DNA of 64,000 nucleotides, from the NCBI GenBank assembly GCA_022483245.1, contig JAKVNR010000001.1, forward strand, positions 620,001-684,000, written 5' to 3'. This document shows positions 17,629-61,645 of this stretch, piece by piece. The notes beneath the pieces were generated by a model, which was not told the DNA's origin, made no database searches, and was given only the letters and a program-made list of their open reading frames with translations. Numbering within the stretch: the first letter of the stretch is position 1; each line of letters starts with the position of its first letter. The DNA comes from Lactobacillus sp. (GTDB lineage Bacteria; Bacillota; Bacilli; Lactobacillales; Lactobacillaceae). The translations under genes and the position numbers were made by a program.

Positions 17629-19110
17629 TTAAGCTTGAGTTGCGCCTGAAGTAGCGTCAGCTGCAGGTTCTTCTTCTTTTTCGTCTTCAAGAACAACTGG
17701 TTCTAACTTCATGCCAGCTGCTTCCAATTGAGCTGCCATTTCCAAACCAGCTTCACGGCCGTTAACAACAGTTTCAGCAATTGAGTTACCACCAATTCTG
17801 TTGTTACCGTGCAGACCACCAGCAACTTCACCAGCTGCGTACAAGCCCTTGATAACGTTACCGTTTTCGTCGATAACTTGGGTCTTGCTGTTAACGTGAA
17901 CACCACCCATAGTGTAGTGGATAGCTGGAGCAATGTGAATTGCGTAGAATGGTCCTTCGATAGGACGTTGCATACCAGTAGTCCGGCCGAATTGTTCATC
18001 CTTGCCAGCCTTAACTGCCATGTTCCACTTCTCAACAGTTTCTTCCAAGGTCTTAGCGTGTTCGTTGTTTTGACCGCCAAGCAAGCCTGCCAAGTCGTCA
18101 CTCTTCTTAACCAGGCCAATTGATTCGTAGAAGTCTAATGACTTAGCGTGGTCACGAGTACCTTGACCAAAGATCAAGAATGCTGAGTGTTCTGGCAAAG
18201 CAGTAATAGCGTTTGAAACGATCTTACGAGTAGTTAATTCGTTTACGAAACGGTGGCCGCGGAAGTCACATAAGATGGCACCTTCACCACGAACAGCTTC
18301 ACCGATTAAGTATGGGTGATCGCCATCTTGGTAAACAGTTGGGTGGATTTGGATTAAGTCCATTTGAGTTAATTGGGCACCACATTCGGTAGCCAACTTG
18401 ATACCGTCACCAGTTGAGCCAGGGCCGTTAGTAGTTTCGTAGTCAACCAGGTCTGGACGGTACTTCTTGATCATGTCCTTGTTGTGACCGAAACCACCTG
18501 AAGCAAGCAGAACAGCCTTAGTAGCAACTTCACGTGGGCCGCCTTCAGTACCAACTAAAACGCCAGTAACGTTGCCGTCTTCGTCTTGTTCGATCTTCTT
18601 AACTTGGCAGTTGTTGAAGATTGAAATATTGTCTGCGTATTTAGCAGCAGTTTCCAGCAAGTGGCTTACTAAGTAACCACCAACAGCTGACATGTCAGCT
18701 GGACGGTGAGCACGAGGCTTAGACATACCACCAGTGATAGTTAAGTCGCTTAAGTCAATCTTGTGGTCAGCTAACCAGTCAATTGCTAATGGAGTGTGGT
18801 TAACGAAGAACCGCAGCATGTCGCGGTCGTTCATGTAGCCACCACCCTTTAAGGTTTCCTTGTAGAAGTCGTCAGCGCTGTCGATCACGCCGTGCTTTAA
18901 TTGAACGTGGGTTTCAGCAGCGTTCATACCTGATGAAGCCTTCTTAGTGTTACCACCAAGTTCGTCTTGCTTTTCAAAAACAGCAACGTGCAAGCCCATT
19001 TCAGCAGCTTGAATAGCAGCAGTTAAGCCGGCACCACCAGCACCAACTACAACTGCATCGTAAGATTCTTCTAATTCAACAAACCATTTTGGTTCATAAT
19101 GAAATGCCAT
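17629..19110 (-). CDS. Fumarate reductase/FAD-binding flavoprotein with C-terminal DATSGAT motif
   Basis: VVVGAGGAGLTAAIQAAEMG, HPTVYQDG, GEAVRGEGAI, GGLHGNNRIGGNSIAETVVNGR; C-term DATSGATQA. Confidence 0.92.
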   Translation of the reverse strand: MAFHYEPKWFVELEESYDAVVVGAGGAGLTAAIQAAEMGLHVAVFEKQDELGGNTKKASSGMNAAETHVQLKHGVIDSADDFYKETLKGGGYMNDRDMLRFFVNHTPLAIDWLADHKIDLSDLTITGGMSKPRAHRPADMSAVGGYLVSHLLETAAKYADNISIFNNCQVKKIEQDEDGNVTGVLVGTEGGPREVATKAVLLASGGFGHNKDMIKKYRPDLVDYETTNGPGSTGDGIKLATECGAQLTQMDLIQIHPTVYQDGDHPYLIGEAVRGEGAILCDFRGHRFVNELTTRKIVSNAITALPEHSAFLIFGQGTRDHAKSLDFYESIGLVKKSDDLAGLLGGQNNEHAKTLEETVEKWNMAVKAGKDEQFGRTTGMQRPIEGPFYAIHIAPAIHYTMGGVHVNSKTQVIDENGNVIKGLYAAGEVAGGLHGNNRIGGNSIAETVVNGREAGLEMAAQLEAAGMKLEPVVLEDEKEEEPAADATSGATQA

Positions 19111-19136
19111 CTTTAATTCTCTCCTATACTACTTAA

Positions 19137-20534
19137 CTAATCCATTGGATCGGTACTGTCGACATTAGTCATGGCAAGCATGTCCATCCACTCATCGTAT
19201 TGCTCAGCGGTTACCTTGCCACTCTTTAAAGCAGCTTCGCGCAATGTGCTGCCAGCCTTGTCAGCAGCTTGTGCGATCTTAGCAGCTGCGTGGTAGCCAA
19301 TGTGTGGTGACAAAGCAGTAACTGTCATCAATGAGTTTTCAAGCAAGTCGTCCATCCGCTCAGCGTTAACAGTTAAGCCGTGGATCATCTTGTCAGCAAA
19401 GCCCTTGATTGTGCCAGCCATCAGGTCAGCTGAGTCAAGGAAGGCTGCAATCATAACTGGCTTGAAGACGTTCATTTCAAAGTTACCTTGTGAGCAGGCA
19501 GCGGTGATGGTCGTGTCGTTGCCAAAGACTTTCAAGGCAGCCATCGTGACAGCTTCAGCCTGAGTTGGGTTGACCTTGCCTGGCATGATTGATGAACCAG
19601 GTTCGTTAGCAGGAATGTTCAATTCGCCGTAGCCAGCCCGTGGACCAGAAGCCAAGAACCGAATGTCTTGTGCAATCTTAAACATATCAGCAGCCAAGCT
19701 CTTTAAAGCACCGTGAACAGTGTTAATGCCTGAGTGGTGAGCTAAGCCGAAGAACTTGTTGGTCTTAACGTTGAATTCGTGACCATAAACCTTGGACAGT
19801 TTTTCAGCGATTCTAGCAGTCATGCCAGGAGCGGCATTCAAACCAGTACCAACAGCAGTACCACCAATAGCCAGTTCATACAGAGTTGGCTTCAGAGTCT
19901 TGATGTAATCTAAGTCATGCTCCAAAGCTGAAACGTAACCAGAAACTTCTTGGCCGAATGTTAATGGCGTAGCATCTTGCAAGTGGGTCCGGCCGACCTT
20001 AACAGTCTTCCAGTACTTCTCTTGCTTAACTTTTAATTCGTCAATCAGGTGTTGAACTTGTGGTTCCAGCTTGTCTAAAGCTTGGACAGCGACAAGGTTC
20101 ATAGCGGTTGGGAAAGTATCGTTAGATGATTGGCCACGGTTAACATCGTCATTTGGCAAAATAGTCAAATCTGGGTGCAGCTTCATTGCCATGTTAGCAA
20201 CGACTTCGTTCGTGTTCATGTTGGTTTGCGTACCTGAACCCGTCTGGTAAACATGAAGCGGGAAGTCCTTGCGCAAATCATCATCGCTTAAAGCTGAAAG
20301 CTTGTCGACAGCTTCGATAATCGCCTCACCTTTATCTTTTGGCTCGTCGCCAACTTCAACGTTTGATTGAGCAGCGGCTTTCTTAATTTGCAATAAAGCA
20401 CGAATAATAGCCAAAGGCATTAACTCACCGGTCGGGAAGTTATTGCGACTTCTCTCAGTCTGTGGGCCCCATAAAGCTTCCTTAGGAATCTTGACTGGGC
20501 CGATAGTATCACTTTCGACACGATATTCCGTCAT
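19137..20534 (-). CDS. fumC: Class II fumarate hydratase
   Basis: GSGTQTNMNTNEV, GSSIMPGKVNPTQAE. Confidence 0.96.
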   Translation of the reverse strand: MTEYRVESDTIGPVKIPKEALWGPQTERSRNNFPTGELMPLAIIRALLQIKKAAAQSNVEVGDEPKDKGEAIIEAVDKLSALSDDDLRKDFPLHVYQTGSGTQTNMNTNEVVANMAMKLHPDLTILPNDDVNRGQSSNDTFPTAMNLVAVQALDKLEPQVQHLIDELKVKQEKYWKTVKVGRTHLQDATPLTFGQEVSGYVSALEHDLDYIKTLKPTLYELAIGGTAVGTGLNAAPGMTARIAEKLSKVYGHEFNVKTNKFFGLAHHSGINTVHGALKSLAADMFKIAQDIRFLASGPRAGYGELNIPANEPGSSIMPGKVNPTQAEAVTMAALKVFGNDTTITAACSQGNFEMNVFKPVMIAAFLDSADLMAGTIKGFADKMIHGLTVNAERMDDLLENSLMTVTALSPHIGYHAAAKIAQAADKAGSTLREAALKSGKVTAEQYDEWMDMLAMTNVDSTDPMD

Positions 20535-20661
20535 TAGATTACCTCCAATTTAGGTAGTTATGTTTAAAAACTTCACAAATACATTATAGCTAATTTTCCA
20601 AAATTCAGAAAGCCCTTTCACTCAATTTTAAGAAAAAAGCTACTAATCCCGCAAGATCAGC

Positions 20662-21366
20662 TTAGCGGCGGCGTTGATGACTAAGCTTTTTAACTAGTAA
20701 ATCCCCGACTAATTGGACTAATAAAATCAAAAGAACAACTAGTAAAGTAGCGACCACTGTGACATCATTCGCAAACCGGTTGTAGCCGTAAGAAATGGCC
20801 GTATTACCTAACCCGCCGGCGCCAACTGCACCAGCCATTGCTGTTAAGCCGATCAGACTAATCAAAGTCACGGTTGAAATCCGGATCAGTTCGCCCCGGC
20901 TTTCCTTTAAATAAACATCAAAAATCAAATCTTTGGTCGTGGCTCCTAAAGCCTGAGCGGCTTCAATTTTACCGGCATCAACGCTTTCTAAGGCGACTTG
21001 TACTTGCCGGGCAAAAAATGGAAACACCCCAACGGTCAGCGGCACTAAGGCAGCCTTCATCCCAATTTGCGTACCGACAATCTTTTGTGTTACCGGGGCA
21101 ATCAAAGCTAGCAAGATAATAAAAGGAATGGCCCGCAAGATTGAGATTAATTTATCAATCACATTATGCCAAAAGCGGTTGGCCAGTACCCCGCCCGGTT
21201 TAGTTAGCACCAGCAGCAGTCCAAAGACGATGCCCAGAAAACCGCCAAAAATTGCTGACCAGAAGGTCATAAATAATGTCTGAAAAATTGCGGTCCCCCA
21301 ACCAGCATCGCCGGTCCAGCCTAAGGCAGCGACATTAGGGAATGTTTTAACAAACCAATTAATCAT
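20662..21366 (-). CDS. metI: Methionine ABC transporter permease
   Basis: MetI-type permease, adjacent to metN and metQ genes and a Met T-box. Confidence 0.9.
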
Positions 21367-35341: not shown

Positions 35342-35515
35342 AAACTGTTGTCTTTAGCTTAGGAGGTCAGCTGGGCATGATCAAGTTAAGACGGTCTATT
35401 TTTCGATAGAAAGCTTTACTGGCTGCGGGCAGCAAATTAGAGACCGGGCACTGCTCTTTTGATACAATTAAGAGCGGCAACTGACAAACGCCTCCCTTGA
35501 AAGGAGGTGAACTCA

Positions 35516-35611
35516 ATGCACGACTTGTTTAAATACGTCATTGCCCCAACAATCGTTGGAATAGCAGTGTCGCTATTTGAATGGTGGCTAGGCCATTTTG
35601 GTAATGATTAA
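35516..35611 (+). CDS. TA1: Fst-like type I toxin, MHDLFKYVIAPTIVGIAVSLFEWWLGHFGND
   Basis: SD aaggaggtg, ATG, hydrophobic IAPxxVG core typical of the Fst family, extended -10 TGATACAAT at 35460-35468, terminator 35663-35696. Confidence 0.88.
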   Translation: MHDLFKYVIAPTIVGIAVSLFEWWLGHFGND

Positions 35612-35659
35612 GTAAGGTTGCCACCTAACCCGCCCGCTTGTTGATCGTAACAAGTGAAA

Positions 35660-35736
35660 AATAAAAGCACTATCTCTGGAACAGATAGTGCTTTTTGCGT
35701 TACTCAATGCATATGAATTGTTTAAATACGTTGCAT
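35660..35736 (-). ncRNA. TA1 antitoxin antisense RNA (converging, shares terminator)
   Basis: Minus-strand extended -10 TGATATACT (35741-35746); DR ACTCAATGCATATGAATTGTTTAAATACG matches toxin start region; terminator 35663-35696. Confidence 0.75.
35663..35696. terminator. TA1 shared bidirectional terminator
   Basis: AAAAGCACTATCTCTGGAACAGATAGTGCTTTTT. Confidence 0.85.
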
Positions 35737-35802
35737 ATTCAGTATATCATAAAGAATAAAATATAATCTATAAGTATGCTTTATAGTTTAAGGATATCAA
35801 AC

Positions 35803-35885
35803 AAAAGCACTACCTCTCGTACAGATAGTGCTTTTTGCGTTGTTTGATGCATAGACCTGATTCAATGCGTCGCATACTTAGTATA
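35803..35885 (-). ncRNA. S1: solo antitoxin unit without adjacent toxin ORF
   Basis: Terminator 35803-35836, DR and -10 (35880-35885); 35821-35937 is identical to 36243-36359. Confidence 0.7.
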
Positions 35886-35937
35886 TCATGAATTGGCTTT
35901 TAAACAATCAAATTAGAGGGGGATCTATTTTGATAAA
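35821..35937. repeat. 117-bp repeat copy 1 (second copy at 36243-36359)
   Basis: Letter-by-letter identical, constant 422-bp offset. Confidence 0.95.
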
Positions 35938-36077
35938 TGTAATACATCTACATTGACTAGATATATTAGTGGTTATATTTATATGCAAATCTCAGCCGAA
36001 CGAGCCCTATACTTATAATTTTGATACAATTAAGAGCGGCAACTGACAAACACCTCCCCTGAAAGGAGGTGAGTTTG

Positions 36078-36176
36078 TTGCACGACCTGATTCATTACGT
36101 CATTGCCCCGATTATTGTCGGTATAGCAGTGTCGCTATTTGAATGGTGGTTAGGCCATTATGGCAATGACAAGTAA
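36078..36176 (+). CDS. TA2: Fst-like type I toxin, (TTG)HDLIHYVIAPIIVGIAVSLFEWWLGHYGNDK
   Basis: SD gaaaggaggtg, TTG start, extended -10 TGATACAAT (36025-36030), same architecture as TA1. Confidence 0.85.
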   Translation: MHDLIHYVIAPIIVGIAVSLFEWWLGHYGNDK

Positions 36177-36221
36177 AGGTTGCCACTTAACCCGCCCGCT
36201 TGTTGATCGTAACAAGTGAAA

Positions 36222-36297
36222 AATAAAAGCACTATCTCTGATACAGATAGTGCTTTTTGCGTTGTTTGATGCATAGACCTGATTCAATGCGTCGCAT
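36222..36297 (-). ncRNA. TA2 antitoxin antisense RNA
   Basis: Minus -35 TTGTTT / extended -10 TGATATACT (36302-36307); DR GATGCATAGACCTGATTCAATGCGTC matches toxin TTGCACGACCTGATTCATTACGTC; terminator 36225-36258. Confidence 0.75.
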
Positions 36298-36363
36298 ACT
36301 TAGTATATCATGAATTGGCTTTTAAACAATCAAATTAGAGGGGGATCTATTTTGATAAAACGC

Positions 36364-38695
36364 TTATTCATGCTTGCGGCGGTTTGTGCCAGCTAAACCA
36401 AGCAGGGCTGACAAACCAGCTGCTAACCAGCCAAAGATAGCGAGGTTATTTCCACCGTTGGTTTGCGGTAACGATTGCTGGCTTTGTGCCTTAACAGTTG
36501 TACCTTGGTGGCCTGGAACTGTTGAAATACCAGTTGGTTGAACAGGATTAGTTTGATCAGTTGAGCCATTATCTTTTGACCCGCCTTGATCGGTCTGATT
36601 ATCACCATCATCAGCCTTGTTCTTGCTGTAAGTAATGGTAATTGTGACGTCTTGCGTATCGTAAGTAACAGTCTGTGCTGCTACTTGGGTAATGCTTGGA
36701 GTGTAGCCGTCGATTGTTGGAGCATCGAATTCAGGCCATTCGCCAGTTGACCAATCGCCCCAAGTTGTTTCGCCTGTAGAAAGGTCCTTAGTCCCAGTTC
36801 TGGTCAAGGTAACTGTTTGTTTGGTAGTGGAAGTTTCACCGGTAATCGGGTCAACCACGTTGATCGTCCGGGTGATAGTTTTTGAATCAGAAACTGGTTC
36901 AGTAGTTGGGGTATCTGGTTCTTGCGGTGTATCCTTTACAGCTTTGATCGAAATCTTCCCGCCTTCTACAGCAGGTAACTGACTTAAAGGCGGAATGAAT
37001 CCAGCACCAGCATAGCCAATCACCGGATTATCTATTTGATAGTCTTCAGTACCTGTGTAAGTATTTAATTTAACATCGTTCAACAAGTAATTTTCATAAT
37101 CTTCTTGTGAACATGGTGCTAAATAGTACTCGTCCTGTTTATACGCAATCGTCTTAAACTTCATGGTCATCCCAGAACCACTGTAAAATGGACTACCATT
37201 CATCCCACTCGCTGAACCATCATTTCCTCCATCTGCGTAGACTACTATTCCAGCACCTTCATAAGTACTATTAGCTAAATCAATCACGTGGTTCACATGC
37301 AAGCCATTACTGGTAGTAGTTTCCAAGTGGTAGCCCTCAGGAAGAGTGAACGATTTTGACCCAAACATTAAGTCCAAATATTGATAAGTACCAAAAGCTA
37401 TCCCTGCTTCTTGATGCTGAGGTGCTAAATAGCCAAATGTATCTGAACTATGGCTGACATCGCTAGGCAGCAAAGACGAAGCAGTATCACTAGTTAAAGC
37501 GTTGCCCCAAACATCAGTGCCCTGGAGTTTTCCTTCGTCAATCAGTTTTTGAATTTGGTTGACCCATTCTTGGTAGGTATTGCCATACATACTAAAGGTG
37601 TTATCAACATCAACGCCATCTGCGCTAATTGAACCATCTTGATTCATCCAAGCAAACATGTATGGAACACCTTGATATTCTTCTTTAAAAATAACATCGC
37701 TAGTTACTTGGTCTTTAATCGCTGTCCCAAAAATCAAGCCATATTGCTGATCAACAAGTGTGGTTTCAGTCCCATCTGGTGCTTGAGCAACAACTTCATA
37801 ATGCTTCCAGGAAGATATTCTAGAATCCTTTAAGTAATCTTGTGTAACATCTTTTTGACCATGAACTAAGCTAACTTTAAACGTATCATTAGCCCAATCA
37901 TCAGTTACAGAAGTATACAGATCTTGCGTCGTCCCATCAGGTTTAACTAAACTCAGCGAACCATTATAACTACTAAAAGTCTGACTGGCAGTTCTGGTTG
38001 AATTGGTTTCATAATCCGTGCTGTAACGCCAACCGTGTTTATATAAGTCATCAGGAATATCAAAATTGCGAGCATTTTCTTCGTTAGATAGTAAGAAGAA
38101 ATTGCCTTTTGCCGCATCAACTGAGCTAGTATCTAATACATTTCCTTCTGAATCAACGAAGTTAATCGGAATATTTACTTTATTAGTATCACTGGCACCT
38201 GCAGCTTTTACTTTAACTTGCTTGTCCTTAGTAGCAACAGCTTTAGAATCACTTAATTCTTTAGTTGCTTTAGCTTTAGTTTGCTCATCTGACTTACTTT
38301 CTTCATCACCAGTAGTATCTTTTTGCACCCCCCCCATTTTCAATTTTCAGTGTAGTTTCAGTATCAGTTGCAGCAGCCTGAGTCTGCTCAGCGTGAGCAG
38401 CTTTTTGTTTTTTAGTGGTAGCATCTGCTGCAACGGTTTCAGTCTCAGCACTAGCTTTGTTCTCTGCAGTAGTCGCTTTACTTGATGGGTCAACAGTTTC
38501 TTTTTTACTTGAAACTGCTGTTTGAGTAACATTTGTCGTAGTGTCTGTTGTCTCAGCCTTAACTTGCCCTGGTCCCGCAACCAAAAAGGTCGTTGCCAGC
38601 GCAACCGATGCTAAACCAACTGACAATTTGCGTAATCCAAAATGTTGAATACCCTCGCTTGTATAAAGCTTAGGTTTATGAAATTTGCTAAACAT
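36364..38695 (-). pseudogene. Adhesin A: YSIRK-like/MucBP protein with LPQTN sorting motif, out of frame at a G8 tract (ORFs 38306-38695 and 36364-38343)
   Basis: FGLRKLSVGLASVALATTFLV signal; C-term LPQTNGGNNLAIFGWLAAGLSALLGLAGTNRRKHE; C8 on + at 38328-38335; G7 would give ENGGVQKDTTGDEES in frame. Confidence 0.88.
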
Positions 38696-38886: not shown

Positions 38887-38990
38887 GCAATGACAAGTAA
38901 ACAATAAAAGCACTATCTATAGGACAGATAGTGCTTTTTGCGTTGTTTGATGCATAGACATAATTATGCGTCGTAGGCGTAATATATCAT
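38887..38990 (-). ncRNA. S2: decayed solo antitoxin/terminator unit with toxin 3' remnant (agcaatgacaagtaa)
   Basis: Terminator 38906-38939 AAAAGCACTATCTATAGGACAGATAGTGCTTTTT; -10 TATATT at 38981-38986. Confidence 0.6.
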
Positions 38991-39031: not shown

Positions 39032-41451
39032 TTATTCATGCTTGCGGCGGCTAGTGCCAGCTAAAGCAAACAGCGCTGACAAACTAGCTACTAGCCAACC
39101 CAAGATAGCGAAGTTATTTTCACCGTTGGTTTGCGGTAAAGATTGTGCAATTTGCTTGTTAGTAGTTTTGGCCTGACTAGCACCAGCAGCTTTGGCAGCT
39201 TGACCAATATTACCAGCTGACTTGCCATGATGGACGTTGGAAGAACTGCCACCATTCGAGCCGTTGTGACCCGGCTTTTGACCGCCTTGGTCGTCTGTAT
39301 TGCTGCTATTCTTAGTGTAGGTAATGGTAATCGTTACGTCATGAGTATCTGAAGTTACAACTTGATCTGGTACAACAGCTTGACTTGGAGTATAGCCTTT
39401 AAATTCAGGTGCATCGAATTCAGGCCATCCGCCAGTTGACCAATCGCCCCAGGTTGTTTCGCCCGTCGAAAGGTCCTTAGTGCCAGATCTAGTCAAGGTA
39501 ACAGTTTGCTTAGTAGTGGAAACTTCGCCGGTGATTGGATCGACGACGTTAATATTCCGAGTGATGGTTCTTGAATCGGAAACTGGTTCGGTTGTTGGGG
39601 TTGGTGGAACGTCAGTGTCATCTTTAACGTATTTGATGACGATCGTTTGCGAGGCAGGTAGCTTGCTTAGGTCCGGTACGTAGCCATCGCCTTTGTACCC
39701 AGTTAAGACACCAATGCTTGTCGTAAAACTTTGAAGTCCAGCAAGATTTAATAAATAGTTTTCATAATCTTTCTCTGACAATGGGGCCAAATAATAGCCA
39801 CCGTTTGTACCATCATCTTTCTCATAAGATATACGATTAAATTTTAACGTTAAGGATGTAGAGGAACCAGATTGAAATGGTAAGCCTGTATTATTGTTTG
39901 CGGATACTACTATGCCCGTCCCCTCATAACTACTATTTTTTAAATTAATGGTACGATTGACAAATAATCCATTTCCATTAGAAATTTCTGCATGATAGCC
40001 AGCCACTTTAGGAATGGAGAAGGAAGTTGATCCCAGCATTAATTCATTGCAATTACCATTAATAAGAAAACCAGCTTCATGCTTATTACCTTCTGCTAAA
40101 TAATTACCCGATGAATATGTGCCAGAAATCATTTCATCAGCAATTGTTTCGGCTTCTGAGGCCTGTAACGGATCTGAACTCCAGCGACTCGTCCCTTGCA
40201 ATTTTCCATCGCTGACTAATGATTTAATTTGTTGGCCCCAGTTTTGATAACTATTGCCATACATAGAAAAGATATTAGGGATATTCTGAAGATCCACATA
40301 TTTGTGGGTTGTTTCATCGTAGACCTTTAAGCCAAATTGATTTTCCTGTGGATTATCTTGTTCATTAGGATCATAGCCTTTTTGCTTGGTAACCTTGGTA
40401 TCAGGGTTGTTATCAACTAAATCTTCAACTACATTGCCATAGATAATAACAAAATGTTGTTCCTTTAATATTTTATTGCTTCCATTGGGTAATTCAGCGA
40501 TAACTTTGTAATCACGCTTAGCTGCAATCTCCGGGTCGCTATAGTACTGGTCAGTAATATTTTTCTTACCGTGAACTAATTGAACTTTAAAATGATAATT
40601 GTCCCAAGCATCTGAAACAGGTTCGCTACTATAACTGACGTTCGTACCGTCTTCTTTCACCAAACTGACAGATTGCTGATTATTTTTTATTTCTTGACTA
40701 GCTGTATGATACGAAGTTGTCCAATAATCGGTACTATAACGCCAGCCTTCGTCATACAGAGTTTGCGGAATATTAAATTTTGCAGCATATTTTGAATCTG
40801 TTGGATCGAAATTTTCGTTCTTGGTTGCATCTACAGAATTACTATCATCGAGAACATTGTTATCCGAATCCATAAATTGAATTTTAACGTTAACAGTATC
40901 TTGGCTACTTGCTGATAATGCCTTTAAGACCCGTTTTTTGATAAAGCAACAGCCTTCGATCCAGCTAATTGTTCTTTCGAATTAATCTTTTTTTCATTAG
41001 AAGATGATAGGGTATTGACTTTCTCAGCGTCTTTAGAATCACTAGATAGCGCTTTTCTAGAACTATCAAAAATTAAGTCTTTTTGGTTATTTGCTGCAAG
41101 AGTCGTTAATTCGGTCGAACCTTCTTTTTTTAGACCATCATCCTGTTTATTAGAATCATTTGCGGCTCCCCGATTTTCATTAGAAAGAACGGTTGACTTT
41201 TTAGCGATAGAATTTTCTTGATTTGTTTCTGATCCAGAAGCATCTCCAGTTTGTTCATTAGGTACAGCCATTTGACTAACACCAGTTTCTGCAGAAGAAG
41301 CTGTAGTCTCAGCCTTAACTTGCCCTGGTCCTGCTACCAAAAAAGTCGTTGCCAGTGCAACAGACGCTAAACCAACTGACAATTTGCGTAGTCCAAAATG
41401 TTGTACACCCTCGCTTGTCTTGAGCTTAAGTTGAGTATTTTTAGCAAACAT
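39032..41451 (-). pseudogene. Adhesin B: paralogue of adhesin A, LPQTN sorting motif, frame broken at an A6 tract (ORFs 40924-41451 and 39032-40873)
   Basis: FGLRKLSVGLASVALATTFLVAGPGQVKAETT; TCAAAAAACGGGTCTTAA: A7 would read SKKRVLKALSASSQDTVNVKIQFMDSDN in frame. Confidence 0.85.
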
Positions 41452-41645: not shown

Positions 41646-41741
41646 GCAATGACAAGTAAAAGCTGCCACTTAACATGCACGTATGTTAATCGCAACTAGT
41701 AAAAAATAAAAGCACTATCTCTAGAACGGATAGTGCTTTTT
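41646..41741. repeat. R3: decayed TA remnant (toxin 3' end plus terminator)
   Basis: agcaatgacaagtaa ... AAAAGCACTATCTCTAGAACGGATAGTGCTTTTT. Confidence 0.65.
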
Positions 41742-41810
41742 GCTTTATTTATACTTTAGAAACGTTAGTAGATTTCAGCAGAACTTGCTGAGCAACTACT
41801 AATACAATAA

Positions 41811-42118: not shown

Positions 42119-42329
42119 AGTAACAGTTGCCATTTACCCGCACGCTTATCATTGCAAGTTAAGTATACCATGTTTATTTGATTCGATTACCATTCTTAGC
42201 TAAGTATAGTCTAAGAGGTTTTCCAATTTTGACTGTAAATTGCTAGGCTAATAACCTATTGCATCCTATATTTTGATACAATTATTATCGGCATCTGGCA
42301 TACGCCTCCCCGAAAGGAGGTGAACTCGC

Positions 42330-42425
42330 TTGGACTTTTTTCAACATATCGTGGCTCCGATCATTGTCGGTTTAGTCATGCGGCTAATTGATTACTTACT
42401 CAATAATCATGGTCACGATAAGTAA
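42330..42425 (+). CDS. TA3: Fst-like type I toxin, (TTG)DFFQHIVAPIIVGLVMRLIDYLLNNHGHDK
   Basis: SD gaaaggaggtg, extended -10 TGATACAAT (42277-42282), terminator 42474-42507. Confidence 0.85.
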   Translation: MDFFQHIVAPIIVGLVMRLIDYLLNNHGHDK

Positions 42426-42470
42426 CCAGTGCCTTTGAGTACACACGTTTGTACATTGTGACAAGCGAAA

Positions 42471-42541
42471 AATAAAAGCACTATCTCTCAACCAGATAGT
42501 GCTTTTTGTGTGACTCGCTTGGACACTTTTTCAACTTATGA
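42471..42541 (-). ncRNA. TA3 antitoxin antisense RNA
   Basis: Minus extended -10 TGCTATAAT (42546-42551); DR GACTCGCTTGGACACTTTTTCAACTTAT matches toxin AACTCGCTTGGACTTTTTTCAACATAT. Confidence 0.75.
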
Positions 42542-42589
42542 AGTTATTATAGCATGAAAACCAATTAGAAACACAAGTTTGAATTCATT

Positions 42590-42761
42590 ATCTATCAAAC
42601 TCATCTTTATTACGCTCATCGTCGGTTTAGCTTTGCAGCTATTTGATTATTTGCTCAAAAATCATGGCCATGATAAATAGCCAGAGCCTTTGAGCACACA
42701 CGCTTGCAAATTGTAACAAGCGAAAAATAAAAGCACATCTCTAGGACAGATAGTGCTTTTT
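42590..42761 (+). pseudogene. R4: decayed TA copy (frameshifted toxin, no SD, imperfect terminator)
   Basis: ITLIVGLALQLFDYLLKNHGHDK* from 42606-42680; terminator 42729-42761 with one arm base deleted. Confidence 0.65.
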
Positions 42762-42819
42762 GTGTGACTTATGTCATCGACATATGCAAATTTATTACAA
42801 ATTAGGTATACCATGTTTT

Positions 42820-42958
42820 GATATTTATAGCATTAAAATGGATTATTTACTCAATAATCATGGCCACGATAAGTAACCAGTGCCATTGGGTACACACGTT
42901 TGTGCATTAAAGCAAGCGAAAAATAAAAGCACTATCTCTAGTACAGATAGTACTTTTT
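42820..42958 (+). pseudogene. R5: decayed TA copy (only toxin C-terminus MDYLLNNHGHDK)
   Basis: gattatttactcaataatcatggccacgataagtaa plus terminator 42925-42958. Confidence 0.6.
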
Positions 42959-43037
42959 TGTGTAGCTTTATGAATAATTTTTCCAATTATACGTTTATTG
43001 TAACAAGATAAAAATAAAATCATTATTACCTGCATCA

Positions 43038-60347: not shown

Positions 60348-60450
60348 TTACTGTTTATAAAGTTCAAGGAAGTGTCCGATTCAGCTATCTTCTTTGATAT
60401 AATTAACGCTGGCAACTGACATACGCCTCCCTTGAAAGGAGGTGAATTTG

Positions 60451-60549
60451 ATGCATGATATTTTCGTATTCATCGTTGCTCCGCTTTTAGTCGGAATAAC
60501 TCTTAAGTTATTTGACTGGTGGCTCAGCAGTCACGGCAACGATAAGTAA
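60451..60549 (+). CDS. TA4: Fst-like type I toxin, MHDIFVFIVAPLLVGITLKLFDWWLSSHGNDK
   Basis: SD gaaaggaggtg, extended -10 TGATATAAT (60398-60403), terminator 60595-60628. Confidence 0.9.
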   Translation: MHDIFVFIVAPLLVGITLKLFDWWLSSHGNDK

Positions 60550-60591
60550 CGGTTGCCATGAGCCCACACGCTCATAGTTGCATGAGCGAAA

Positions 60592-60668
60592 AATAAAAGC
60601 ACTATCTGCCCACTAGATAGTGCTTTTTGTGTTGTTTGATACAAATGATATTTTCATATCCGTTGCAC
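60592..60668 (-). ncRNA. TA4 antitoxin antisense RNA
   Basis: Minus -10 TATAAT (60673-60678); DR TTTGATACAAATGATATTTTCATATCCGTTGC matches toxin TTTGATGCATGATATTTTCGTATTCATCGTTGC. Confidence 0.75.
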
Positions 60669-60816
60669 CTTTATTATAGATGAACAAGCATAAAAAGCCA
60701 AATCTTAATTAAAACGCGCTACCACAATATAAAATAATAAGCCAATTAATGAGCCTGTTTTGATATAACTAACGCTGGCAGCTGACATAAGCCTCCCTTG
60801 AAAGGAGGTGAATTCA

Positions 60817-60918
60817 ATGTTCCAGGACTTTTTCAAGTTCGTCGCTGCCCCGATTATTGTCGGTATAGCACTTAAGCTATTTGACCGGTGGCACGAAAGT
60901 CATGGCAACGATATGTAG
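60817..60918 (+). CDS. TA5: Fst-like type I toxin, MFQDFFKFVAAPIIVGIALKLFDRWHESHGNDM
   Basis: SD gaaaggaggtg, -10 TGATATAAC (60764-60769), terminator 60966-60999. Confidence 0.87.
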   Translation: MFQDFFKFVAAPIIVGIALKLFDRWHESHGNDM

Positions 60919-60962
60919 CAGTTGCCTTCGGCTCGCACATTCATCAGTTGCGGTGAATGTAA

Positions 60963-61037
60963 AAGAAAAGCACTATCTCTGTAACAGATAGTGCTTTTTG
61001 CGTATTCAGTGCAGAAAATATTTTTAAATTCGTTGCA
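60963..61037 (-). ncRNA. TA5 antitoxin antisense RNA
   Basis: Minus extended -10 TGTTATACT (61043-61048); DR TATTCAGTGCAGAAAATATTTTTAAATTCGTTGC. Confidence 0.7.
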
Positions 61038-61241: not shown

Positions 61242-61484
61242 ATGGTTAAAGTCAAAATCATAAAAATTGGTCATTCCAAAGTTCTTCCCGTTCCTAAAGC
61301 ATTCAAAACCATTAGCACTGAATATGAAGCCTTTTTAGGTAGAGATGGTGCGATTACTTTCTTGCCGGTGACTCTCAATCCCTTTGACAATAAAGACTCT
61401 ATTAAAAAATATGGCAAATTCAATGGCGATACTACTTGTTTCATCGACGTTGGGTTTACTGATAAAAAATATGAAGACCTATAA
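61242..61484 (+). CDS. PemI/MazE-like (AbrB-fold) antitoxin, apparently solitary
   Basis: MVKVKIIKIGHSKVLPVPKAFKTISTEYEAFLGRDGAITFLPVTLNPFDN; SD gaaaggag. Confidence 0.75.
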   Translation: MVKVKIIKIGHSKVLPVPKAFKTISTEYEAFLGRDGAITFLPVTLNPFDNKDSIKKYGKFNGDTTCFIDVGFTDKKYEDL

Positions 61485-61569: not shown

Positions 61570-61645
61570 AAGAAAAGCACTATCTGTAAGAGAGATAGTG
61601 CTTTTTGCGTGTCCAGTGCATAGGACATTTTCAAGTTCGTTGCAT
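61570..61645 (-). ncRNA. S6: solo Fst-type antitoxin unit
   Basis: Terminator 61573-61606; -10 TATACT (61650-61655); DR CCAGTGCATAGGACATTTTCAAGTTCGTTGC; no toxin ORF. Confidence 0.7.

What the first reader, a model, noticed from the sequence alone, without database searches (positions are those of the whole stretch)
35511..36300. Copy-specific covariation between toxin start region and antitoxin repeat
In each intact module the sequence beyond the terminator repeats its own toxin start region. TA1: ACTCAATGCACGACTTGTTTAAATACGTC vs ACTCAATGCATATGAATTGTTTAAATACGTTG. TA2: TTGCACGACCTGATTCATTACGTC vs TGCATAGACCTGATTCAATGCGTC. TA3: AACTCGCTTGGACTTTTTTCAACATAT vs GACTCGCTTGGACACTTTTTCAACTTAT. TA4: TTTGATGCATGATATTTTCGTATTCATCGTTGC vs TTTGATACAAATGATATTTTCATATCCGTTGC. 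These correspond to the DRa/DRb repeats of Fst systems, but the words differ among paralogues, implying parallel, mutually orthogonal addiction systems in one genome.
Basis: seen in the sequence. Interest (0 to 1): 0.85.

Follow-up and report, generated by a model that had tools for sequence, protein, structure and literature searches.

The report
Multiple self-matching Fst-type toxin–antitoxin modules
A Lactobacillus chromosome carries six small membrane-toxin genes of a known type, five of which sit beside a small antisense RNA predicted to silence only its own toxin, while the sixth appears to be matched by a stray antisense RNA further along; this is a large, clear natural example of a system whose principle is already known.

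Summary
All eight quoted strings occur as described. The window holds five Fst-family toxin modules and the genome a sixth. In TA1–TA4 and TA6 the sequence beyond the shared terminator repeats that module's own toxin start region. Predicted binding of toxin mRNA to the 5' part of the antitoxin RNA is −11 to −21 kcal/mol for these own pairs, against −1 to −6 for the 20 swapped combinations among these five. The E. faecalis pAD1/EF0409 pair, for which lack of cross-protection by the pAD1 antitoxin is published, scores the same way (−17/−16 against −2/−4). TA2 also has a spare antitoxin copy (35800–35873). In the nearest sister species the module at TA1's site carries different words in both copies, so the two have changed together. 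Fst family, DRa/DRb mechanism and non-cross-reacting paralogues are published, so this is a new, unusually large set of a known kind. Transcription, toxicity, orthogonality and 'addiction' are inferred, not shown.

The parts
35475..35698 (+). TA1 toxin mRNA (RNA I), predicted; extended -10 TGATACAAT at about 35460-35468
   Evidence: stem-loop hiding the ribosome site (CCUCC..GGAGG) in the fold
35516..35611 (+). TA1 Fst toxin, MHDLFKYVIAPTIVGIAVSLFEWWLGHFGND
   Evidence: NCBIfam NF033608 29.9 bits, cut-off 26
35511..35542 (+). TA1 toxin-side repeat over the start codon
35663..35695 (.). TA1 bidirectional terminator hairpin, loop CTGGAAC
35660..35734 (-). TA1 antitoxin RNA II (75 nt predicted), repeat at 35702-35733, extended -10 TGATATACT upstream
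   Evidence: binding -18.8 kcal/mol to own mRNA
35800..35873 (-). Orphan antitoxin unit: copy of TA2 RNA II with promoter, no toxin
   Evidence: 97% over 139 nt; all 4 differences lie in or just beside the hairpin, none in repeat or promoter
36037..36260 (+). TA2 toxin mRNA (RNA I), predicted
   Evidence: Rfam RF02848 56.2 bits, gathering 54
36078..36176 (+). TA2 Fst toxin, start TTG
   Evidence: NF033608 26.5 bits, cut-off 26
36222..36295 (-). TA2 antitoxin RNA II (74 nt predicted), repeat at 36264-36293
   Evidence: binding -13.9 kcal/mol to own mRNA
38903..38974 (-). Decayed orphan antitoxin unit
   Evidence: no toxin gene, no strong partner
41654..41747 (+). Relic: module 3' end with terminator, no toxin start
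42289..42509 (+). TA3 toxin mRNA (RNA I), predicted
42330..42425 (+). TA3 Fst toxin, start TTG, LDFFQHIVAPIIVGLVMRLIDYLLNNHGHDK
   Evidence: NF033608 29.7 bits
42471..42539 (-). TA3 antitoxin RNA II (69 nt predicted)
   Evidence: binding -21.3 kcal/mol to own mRNA
42580..42964 (+). Two relic modules with decayed toxin bodies and terminators
60410..60630 (+). TA4 toxin mRNA (RNA I), predicted
   Evidence: RF02848 68.8 bits
60451..60549 (+). TA4 Fst toxin, MHDIFVFIVAPLLVGITLKLFDWWLSSHGNDK
   Evidence: NF033608 32.2 bits
60592..60666 (-). TA4 antitoxin RNA II (75 nt predicted)
   Evidence: binding -14.6 kcal/mol to own mRNA
60776..61001 (+). TA5 toxin mRNA (RNA I), predicted
60817..60918 (+). TA5 Fst toxin, MFQDFFKFVAAPIIVGIALKLFDRWHESHGNDM
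   Evidence: NF033608 33.8 bits
60963..61036 (-). TA5 own antitoxin RNA II, poorly matched
   Evidence: binding -4.2, same as shuffled -4.3
61570..61643 (-). Orphan antitoxin RNA II, best match of TA5 toxin
   Evidence: binding -14.0 kcal/mol to TA5 mRNA, duplex -38.6

Best explanation
These are chromosomal type I toxin-antitoxin modules of the Fst (par) family. Each makes a toxin mRNA and a convergent ~70-nt antitoxin RNA that share one terminator. The antitoxin's 5' half pairs with the toxin start region through two short words (DRa over the ribosome site/start codon, DRb over codons about 4-9) and blocks translation. Because both words exist in two copies that change together, each of TA1, TA2, TA3, TA4 and TA6 is predicted to be silenced mainly by its own antitoxin, and paralogues coexist without cross-silencing. 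TA2 has a duplicate antitoxin. TA5's local antitoxin has drifted and its toxin is best matched by an orphan antitoxin 0.6 kb downstream. Shown by sequence: family membership, architecture, repeats, word differences, co-change in the sister species. Inferred: transcription, silencing, orthogonality in vivo, the trans guard of TA5.
For: Toxins score over the NCBIfam Fst cut-off. Own-pair binding is the best entry of its row for 5 of 6 modules in the genome and for 4 of 4 in the sister species. The real pairing of six is the best of 720, and none of 200,000 random pairings of ten reaches it. Same scale as pAD1/EF0409, for which RNA II of pAD1 protects against its own toxin RNA but not against EF0409's (PMC7472228). 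At TA1's site the sister species (MAG JALCDX010000003.1) has a module with different words in both copies. TA1 and TA2 are 88% identical over 257 nt, yet swapped binding is at background (-5.0, -3.7). Repeats differ about twofold more (odds) than the rest of the module in all six comparisons made (p 0.0006-0.009). Base pairs around the start are compensated: at many positions 3-6 pair types occur over 11 modules. Intact modules of other Lactobacillus species show the same own-match rule. Extended -10 sites sit at the same place before the antitoxin RNAs.
Against: No transcript or toxicity data are available here. TA5 does not obey the rule. -35 boxes are weak. Pfam PF13955 is matched below its curated cut-off for TA1 and TA2 (27 bits, cut-off 36). 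Energies ignore the kissing between terminator loops and any RNA chaperone. Own and swapped energies are predictions; in the sister species one swapped pair reaches -13.3. Faster divergence of the repeats may be relaxed constraint rather than selection for new words.
Confidence: 0.85

Rival explanations
1. The own-module similarity is only a trace of how modules arise (local duplication or conversion of the start region into the far side of the terminator) and has no role; the modules are decaying remnants.
For: Several relics and decayed copies lie in the same stretch; the mechanism by which the second copy follows the first is not shown.
Against: Own copies differ in the spacer between the two words while the words match, as in pAD1; the rule holds in intact modules across other Lactobacillus genomes and in pAD1/EF0409; repeat and promoter are kept in orphan 35800-35873 with no change in 102 nt.
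Confidence: 0.07
2. The antitoxins act broadly: the shared identical 13-bp terminator stem and common bases let any antitoxin silence several toxins, so the words are fine-tuning, not a specificity code.
For: Terminator arms are identical in TA1-TA6; a few swapped pairs score above background (TA5 with TA3's RNA -9.6, sister S_d with S_a -13.3).
Against: Terminator loops, the published site of first contact, differ between all six modules; most swapped pairs score as shuffled sequence; pAD1 RNA II does not protect against EF0409 although the architecture is shared (PMC7472228).
Confidence: 0.13
3. Special case for TA5: its own antitoxin still suffices (weak pairing plus perfect terminator-loop kissing), and the orphan at 61573 is a passive remnant of a neighbouring lost module.
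For: Own duplex is still z -2.6 by the simpler duplex score; own loop is perfectly complementary by construction.
Against: With folding counted, own binding equals shuffled RNA (-4.2 against -4.3 +/- 2.2) while the orphan gives -14.0, though one of the 60 orphan shuffles reached -13.3.
Confidence: 0.35

Closest known systems
par locus of Enterococcus faecalis plasmid pAD1 (Fst / RNA I / RNA II) and its chromosomal paralogue EF0409
   Same: Fst toxin, convergent RNAs sharing a terminator, DRa/DRb over the start codon, stem-loop hiding the ribosome site, 5' end pairing with sequence after the stop codon; own-pair binding energies of the same size; paralogue antitoxin does not protect (PMC7472228).
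   Different: Here six modules in one chromosome with orphan antitoxin units and relics; toxin termini and words differ; toxicity and transcription untested.
Lpt locus of Lactobacillus rhamnosus plasmids (PMC5608710)
   Same: Fst-related toxin of 29 aa in a (former) Lactobacillus, 74-nt antitoxin with a 24-nt repeat spanning the start codon; predicted antitoxins here are 65-75 nt.
   Different: Lpt was described as restricted to plasmids; the present set is chromosomal and multi-copy.
SprA1/SprA1AS and SprA2/SprA2AS of Staphylococcus aureus (PMC6393315)
   Same: Two Fst-family paralogues in one genome with no cross-regulation by the antitoxins, in vitro and in vivo; specificity lies in the non-overlapping 5' ends.
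   Different: Two loci rather than six; not compared by sequence here.
ZorO-OrzO / ZorP-OrzP of E. coli O157:H7 (PMC3919570)
   Same: Duplicated type I modules whose antitoxin specificity is set by a few bases of the pairing region, proved by swap and compensatory mutation.
   Different: Unrelated toxin; divergent gene layout.

Membership tests
Fst / par type I toxin-antitoxin family | Toxin peptide matches the curated Fst model | tested here: met
   NCBIfam NF033608 over cut-off 26 for all six (26.5-37.2 bits); Pfam PF13955 matched but below its cut-off for TA1 and TA2
Fst / par type I toxin-antitoxin family | Convergent toxin and antitoxin transcription units sharing one bidirectional terminator | tested here: inconclusive
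   Terminator hairpin present in all six; extended -10 sites on both strands at consistent places, -35 weak; no transcript data
Fst / par type I toxin-antitoxin family | Direct repeats DRa/DRb in both RNAs covering the toxin start region | tested here: met
   for TA1-TA4 and TA6; weak for TA5
Fst / par type I toxin-antitoxin family | Stem-loop hiding the ribosome binding site (5'-SL) | tested here: met
   CCUCC...GGAGG hairpin in the predicted fold of all six toxin mRNAs
Fst / par type I toxin-antitoxin family | 5' end pairs with sequence just after the stop codon (5'-UH) | tested here: inconclusive
   Complementary GGCAAC/GUUGCC-type words in the sequences; formed in the best fold of TA3-TA6, replaced by another pairing in TA1 and TA2
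Fst / par type I toxin-antitoxin family | U-turn (YUNR) in the terminator loop | tested here: inconclusive
   Read from the loops: CUGG, CUGA, CUCA in TA1-TA3; not evident in the toxin RNA of TA4 and TA5; a review says not all homologues have it (PMC7472228)
Fst / par type I toxin-antitoxin family | Toxin expression harms the cell and the antitoxin protects | not testable with these tools
   Needs expression experiments
Set of mutually orthogonal paralogues | Own antitoxin binds best, swapped ones at background | tested here: inconclusive
   Met for 5 of 6 in the genome and 4 of 4 in the sister species, with one strong swapped pair in the sister; TA5 fails with its own antitoxin; in-vivo orthogonality not testable here

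The most novel reading that the evidence does not exclude
Antitoxin units can become detached: TA5 is guarded in trans by the orphan antitoxin RNA at 61570-61643, on the far side of an orphan PemI/MazE-like gene, so that loss of that stretch would unleash TA5; and the recognition words of positional counterparts are replaced wholesale between sister species, so that a chromosome's set of toxin-antitoxin 'passwords' is species-specific.
Probability: 0.35. Interest if true: 0.55.

Novelty: new member of a known kind. Interest (0 to 1): 0.42.

Why it matters
It gives a natural panel of six Fst modules, with identical terminator stems but different loops and different repeat words, in one chromosome, plus four in a sister species, on which the base-pairing code that keeps paralogous antisense antitoxins apart can be measured and its change over short evolutionary time followed. 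It also offers two natural cases of antitoxin duplication (TA2, TA5) for asking what happens to a module once a second antitoxin source exists.

Tried and rejected
First family scans failed because of a wrong frame in my coordinates. Automatic start-site finding misread some modules of other genomes (G005d, G009b, G005b, G020b): their upstream sequence lacks a proper start region (a terminator directly precedes the toxin body in at least G005d and G009b), so they were set aside as truncated. G011/G031 own pairs do not rank first because they and G055 look like the same module in related species. A DNA search with the TA1 locus found no match in 40 relatives at E <= 0.001; the sister MAG was not in that set. 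The second orphan-like unit at G000 ~695.7 kb (L022) has no strong partner among the six toxins (-2.2 to -7.4). The hairpin at G000 1,199,552 has no recognisable module around it. A plasmid search with TA1's toxin found only two distant matches, in Lactobacillus amylovorus plasmids. The founding 2009 paper on the family is not held, so statements about it come from later papers.

Full report
What is there. The window is part of a 1.56-Mb Lactobacillus chromosome (G000:C1:620001–684000). It contains five short genes for Fst-family membrane peptides, TA1 35516–35611, TA2 36078–36176, TA3 42330–42425, TA4 60451–60549 and TA5 60817–60918, and the genome has a sixth, TA6, at about 1,382,260 (L001). 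All six score over the NCBIfam Fst cut-off. Rfam recognises the TA2 and TA4 toxin RNAs as RF02848. Each toxin gene is followed by a hairpin with the same 13-bp stem (AAAAGCACTATCT/AGATAGTGCTTTT) but a different loop, and then by 35–40 bases that resemble a toxin start region, followed by a promoter-like -10 site, mostly of the extended type, reading back towards the hairpin. This is the layout of the pAD1 par/Fst locus. There are also antitoxin units without a toxin at 35803, 38906 and 61573, and decayed copies at 41.7 and 42.6–43.0 kb.

The observation. Every quoted string was found at the expected place. The quoted interval covers TA1 and TA2 only. For TA1–TA4 the local-alignment score between the toxin start region and the module's own far side is 34–42, against 10–23 with other far sides (setting aside the orphan copy of TA2's antitoxin, which scores 34 with TA2); TA6 behaves alike (35 against at most 22). 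Among all 720 ways to pair the six modules the true one is the best, by alignment and by duplex energy. The own duplexes of these five are 4.6–7.7 SD below shuffled antitoxin.

Specificity, with folding counted. The binding free energy between the full toxin mRNA and the antitoxin RNA without its hairpin was computed by partition function. Own pairs: TA1 −18.8, TA2 −13.9, TA3 −21.3, TA4 −14.6, TA6 −11.0. Swapped pairs among the six modules lie between −1.3 and −9.6, most of them near the shuffled level of −3 to −4.6. As a yardstick, the same computation on pAD1 and EF0409 of E. faecalis gives −17.0 and −16.4 for own pairs and −2.3 and −4.2 for swapped pairs; a review reports that RNA II of pAD1 protects from its own toxin RNA but not from EF0409's and attributes this to the differing DRa/DRb words (PMC7472228).

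The exception. Its best partner is the toxin-less antitoxin unit at 61570–61643 (−14.0; duplex −38.6), although one of the 60 shuffles of that orphan reached −13.3. Between the two lies an 80-aa gene weakly matching PemI/MazE antitoxins (27 bits, cut-off 50). In the sister species a similar orphan unit follows a related sequence. A simple account is that a second antitoxin source relaxed the constraint on TA5's own one; this is inference. TA2 likewise has a spare antitoxin at 35800–35873, which over 139 nt differs at four bases, all in or just beside the hairpin and none in the repeat or promoter. One of them would turn an A–U pair into a G·U pair in the antitoxin RNA but an A·C mismatch in the toxin direction, as expected if only the antitoxin strand is used (my reading of the sequence; a single case).

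Evidence that the two copies change together. The closest named relative with the locus, MAG JALCDX010000003.1 (about 80% identical DNA here, with one stretch at 99%), has a module next to the same neighbour genes as TA1, with similar 5' leader and terminator but different words in both copies (toxin ATCTATGTGGA…CTAAAAATATT, antitoxin side GTCTATGTGGA…CTAAAAACTTT). TA3's nearest relative there (79% identical, at another site) also has different words in both copies. All four sister modules prefer their own antitoxin, though one swapped pair is strong (toxin S_d with antitoxin S_a, −13.3). In six module comparisons the two repeat regions differ about twofold more (odds ratio 1.9–2.7, p 0.0006–0.009) than the rest of the module. 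Over eleven modules many positions around the start codon are paired with three to six different base-pair types. Intact modules in other Lactobacillus genomes follow the same rule. Faster change of the words can reflect relaxed constraint; the data show maintained pairing, not selection for difference.

Mechanism. Most likely as in pAD1: first contact at the terminator loops, whose sequences differ between the six modules, then pairing at DRa and DRb, which covers the start codon and stops translation (established for pAD1; inferred here). The predicted stem-loop hiding the ribosome site is present in all six, and the pairing of the 5' end with the sequence after the stop codon appears in the best fold of four.

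Novelty. Fst family, mechanism and non-cross-reacting paralogues are published for E. faecalis (PMC7472228) and S. aureus (PMC6393315), a Lactobacillus plasmid member has a 74-nt antitoxin with a 24-nt repeat (PMC5608710), and word-level specificity was proved by swaps for ZorO/OrzO (PMC3919570). What is added is the number of modules in one chromosome, the turnover of words at a fixed site between sister species, and the orphan antitoxins, one of which appears to be the real partner of TA5. 'Addiction' is neither supported nor refuted by anything here.

Noticed in passing
38306-38695 and 36364-38343 (minus strand): A YSIRK/LPXTG surface protein is split into two overlapping frames at a run of eight G (ATGGGGGGGGTGC), which looks like a phase-variable or frameshifted adhesin gene.
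   Followed up: partly
40924-41451 and 39032-40873 (minus strand): A second, related surface protein is also broken into two reading frames, so two neighbouring adhesins among the modules appear to be off or pseudogenes.
   Followed up: no
61242-61484: An 80-aa PemI/MazE-like antitoxin gene with no toxin gene recognised beside it lies between TA5 and the orphan antitoxin RNA (NF047400, 27 bits, cut-off 50).
   Followed up: partly
17781-20663: This stretch is 99% identical to the sister MAG while most of the surroundings are about 80% identical, suggesting recent exchange or a chimeric MAG contig.
   Followed up: no
36049-36223 and 60411-60593; L097, L098, L126, L128: Rfam Enterococcus sRNA families match Fst modules: RF02848 (RefB11) the toxin RNA of TA2, TA4 and two sister modules, RF02844 (RefA9) the pAD1-type antitoxin, RF02637 the EF0409 locus.
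   Followed up: yes
L022 (G000 694002-697034): A further decayed module and a toxin-less antitoxin-like unit of another terminator type, with an extended -10 site and no strong partner among the six toxins.
   Followed up: partly
L099, L101 (genomes G005, G009): Other Lactobacillus genomes carry Fst toxin bodies directly behind a terminator hairpin, without a start region: truncated modules.
   Followed up: partly
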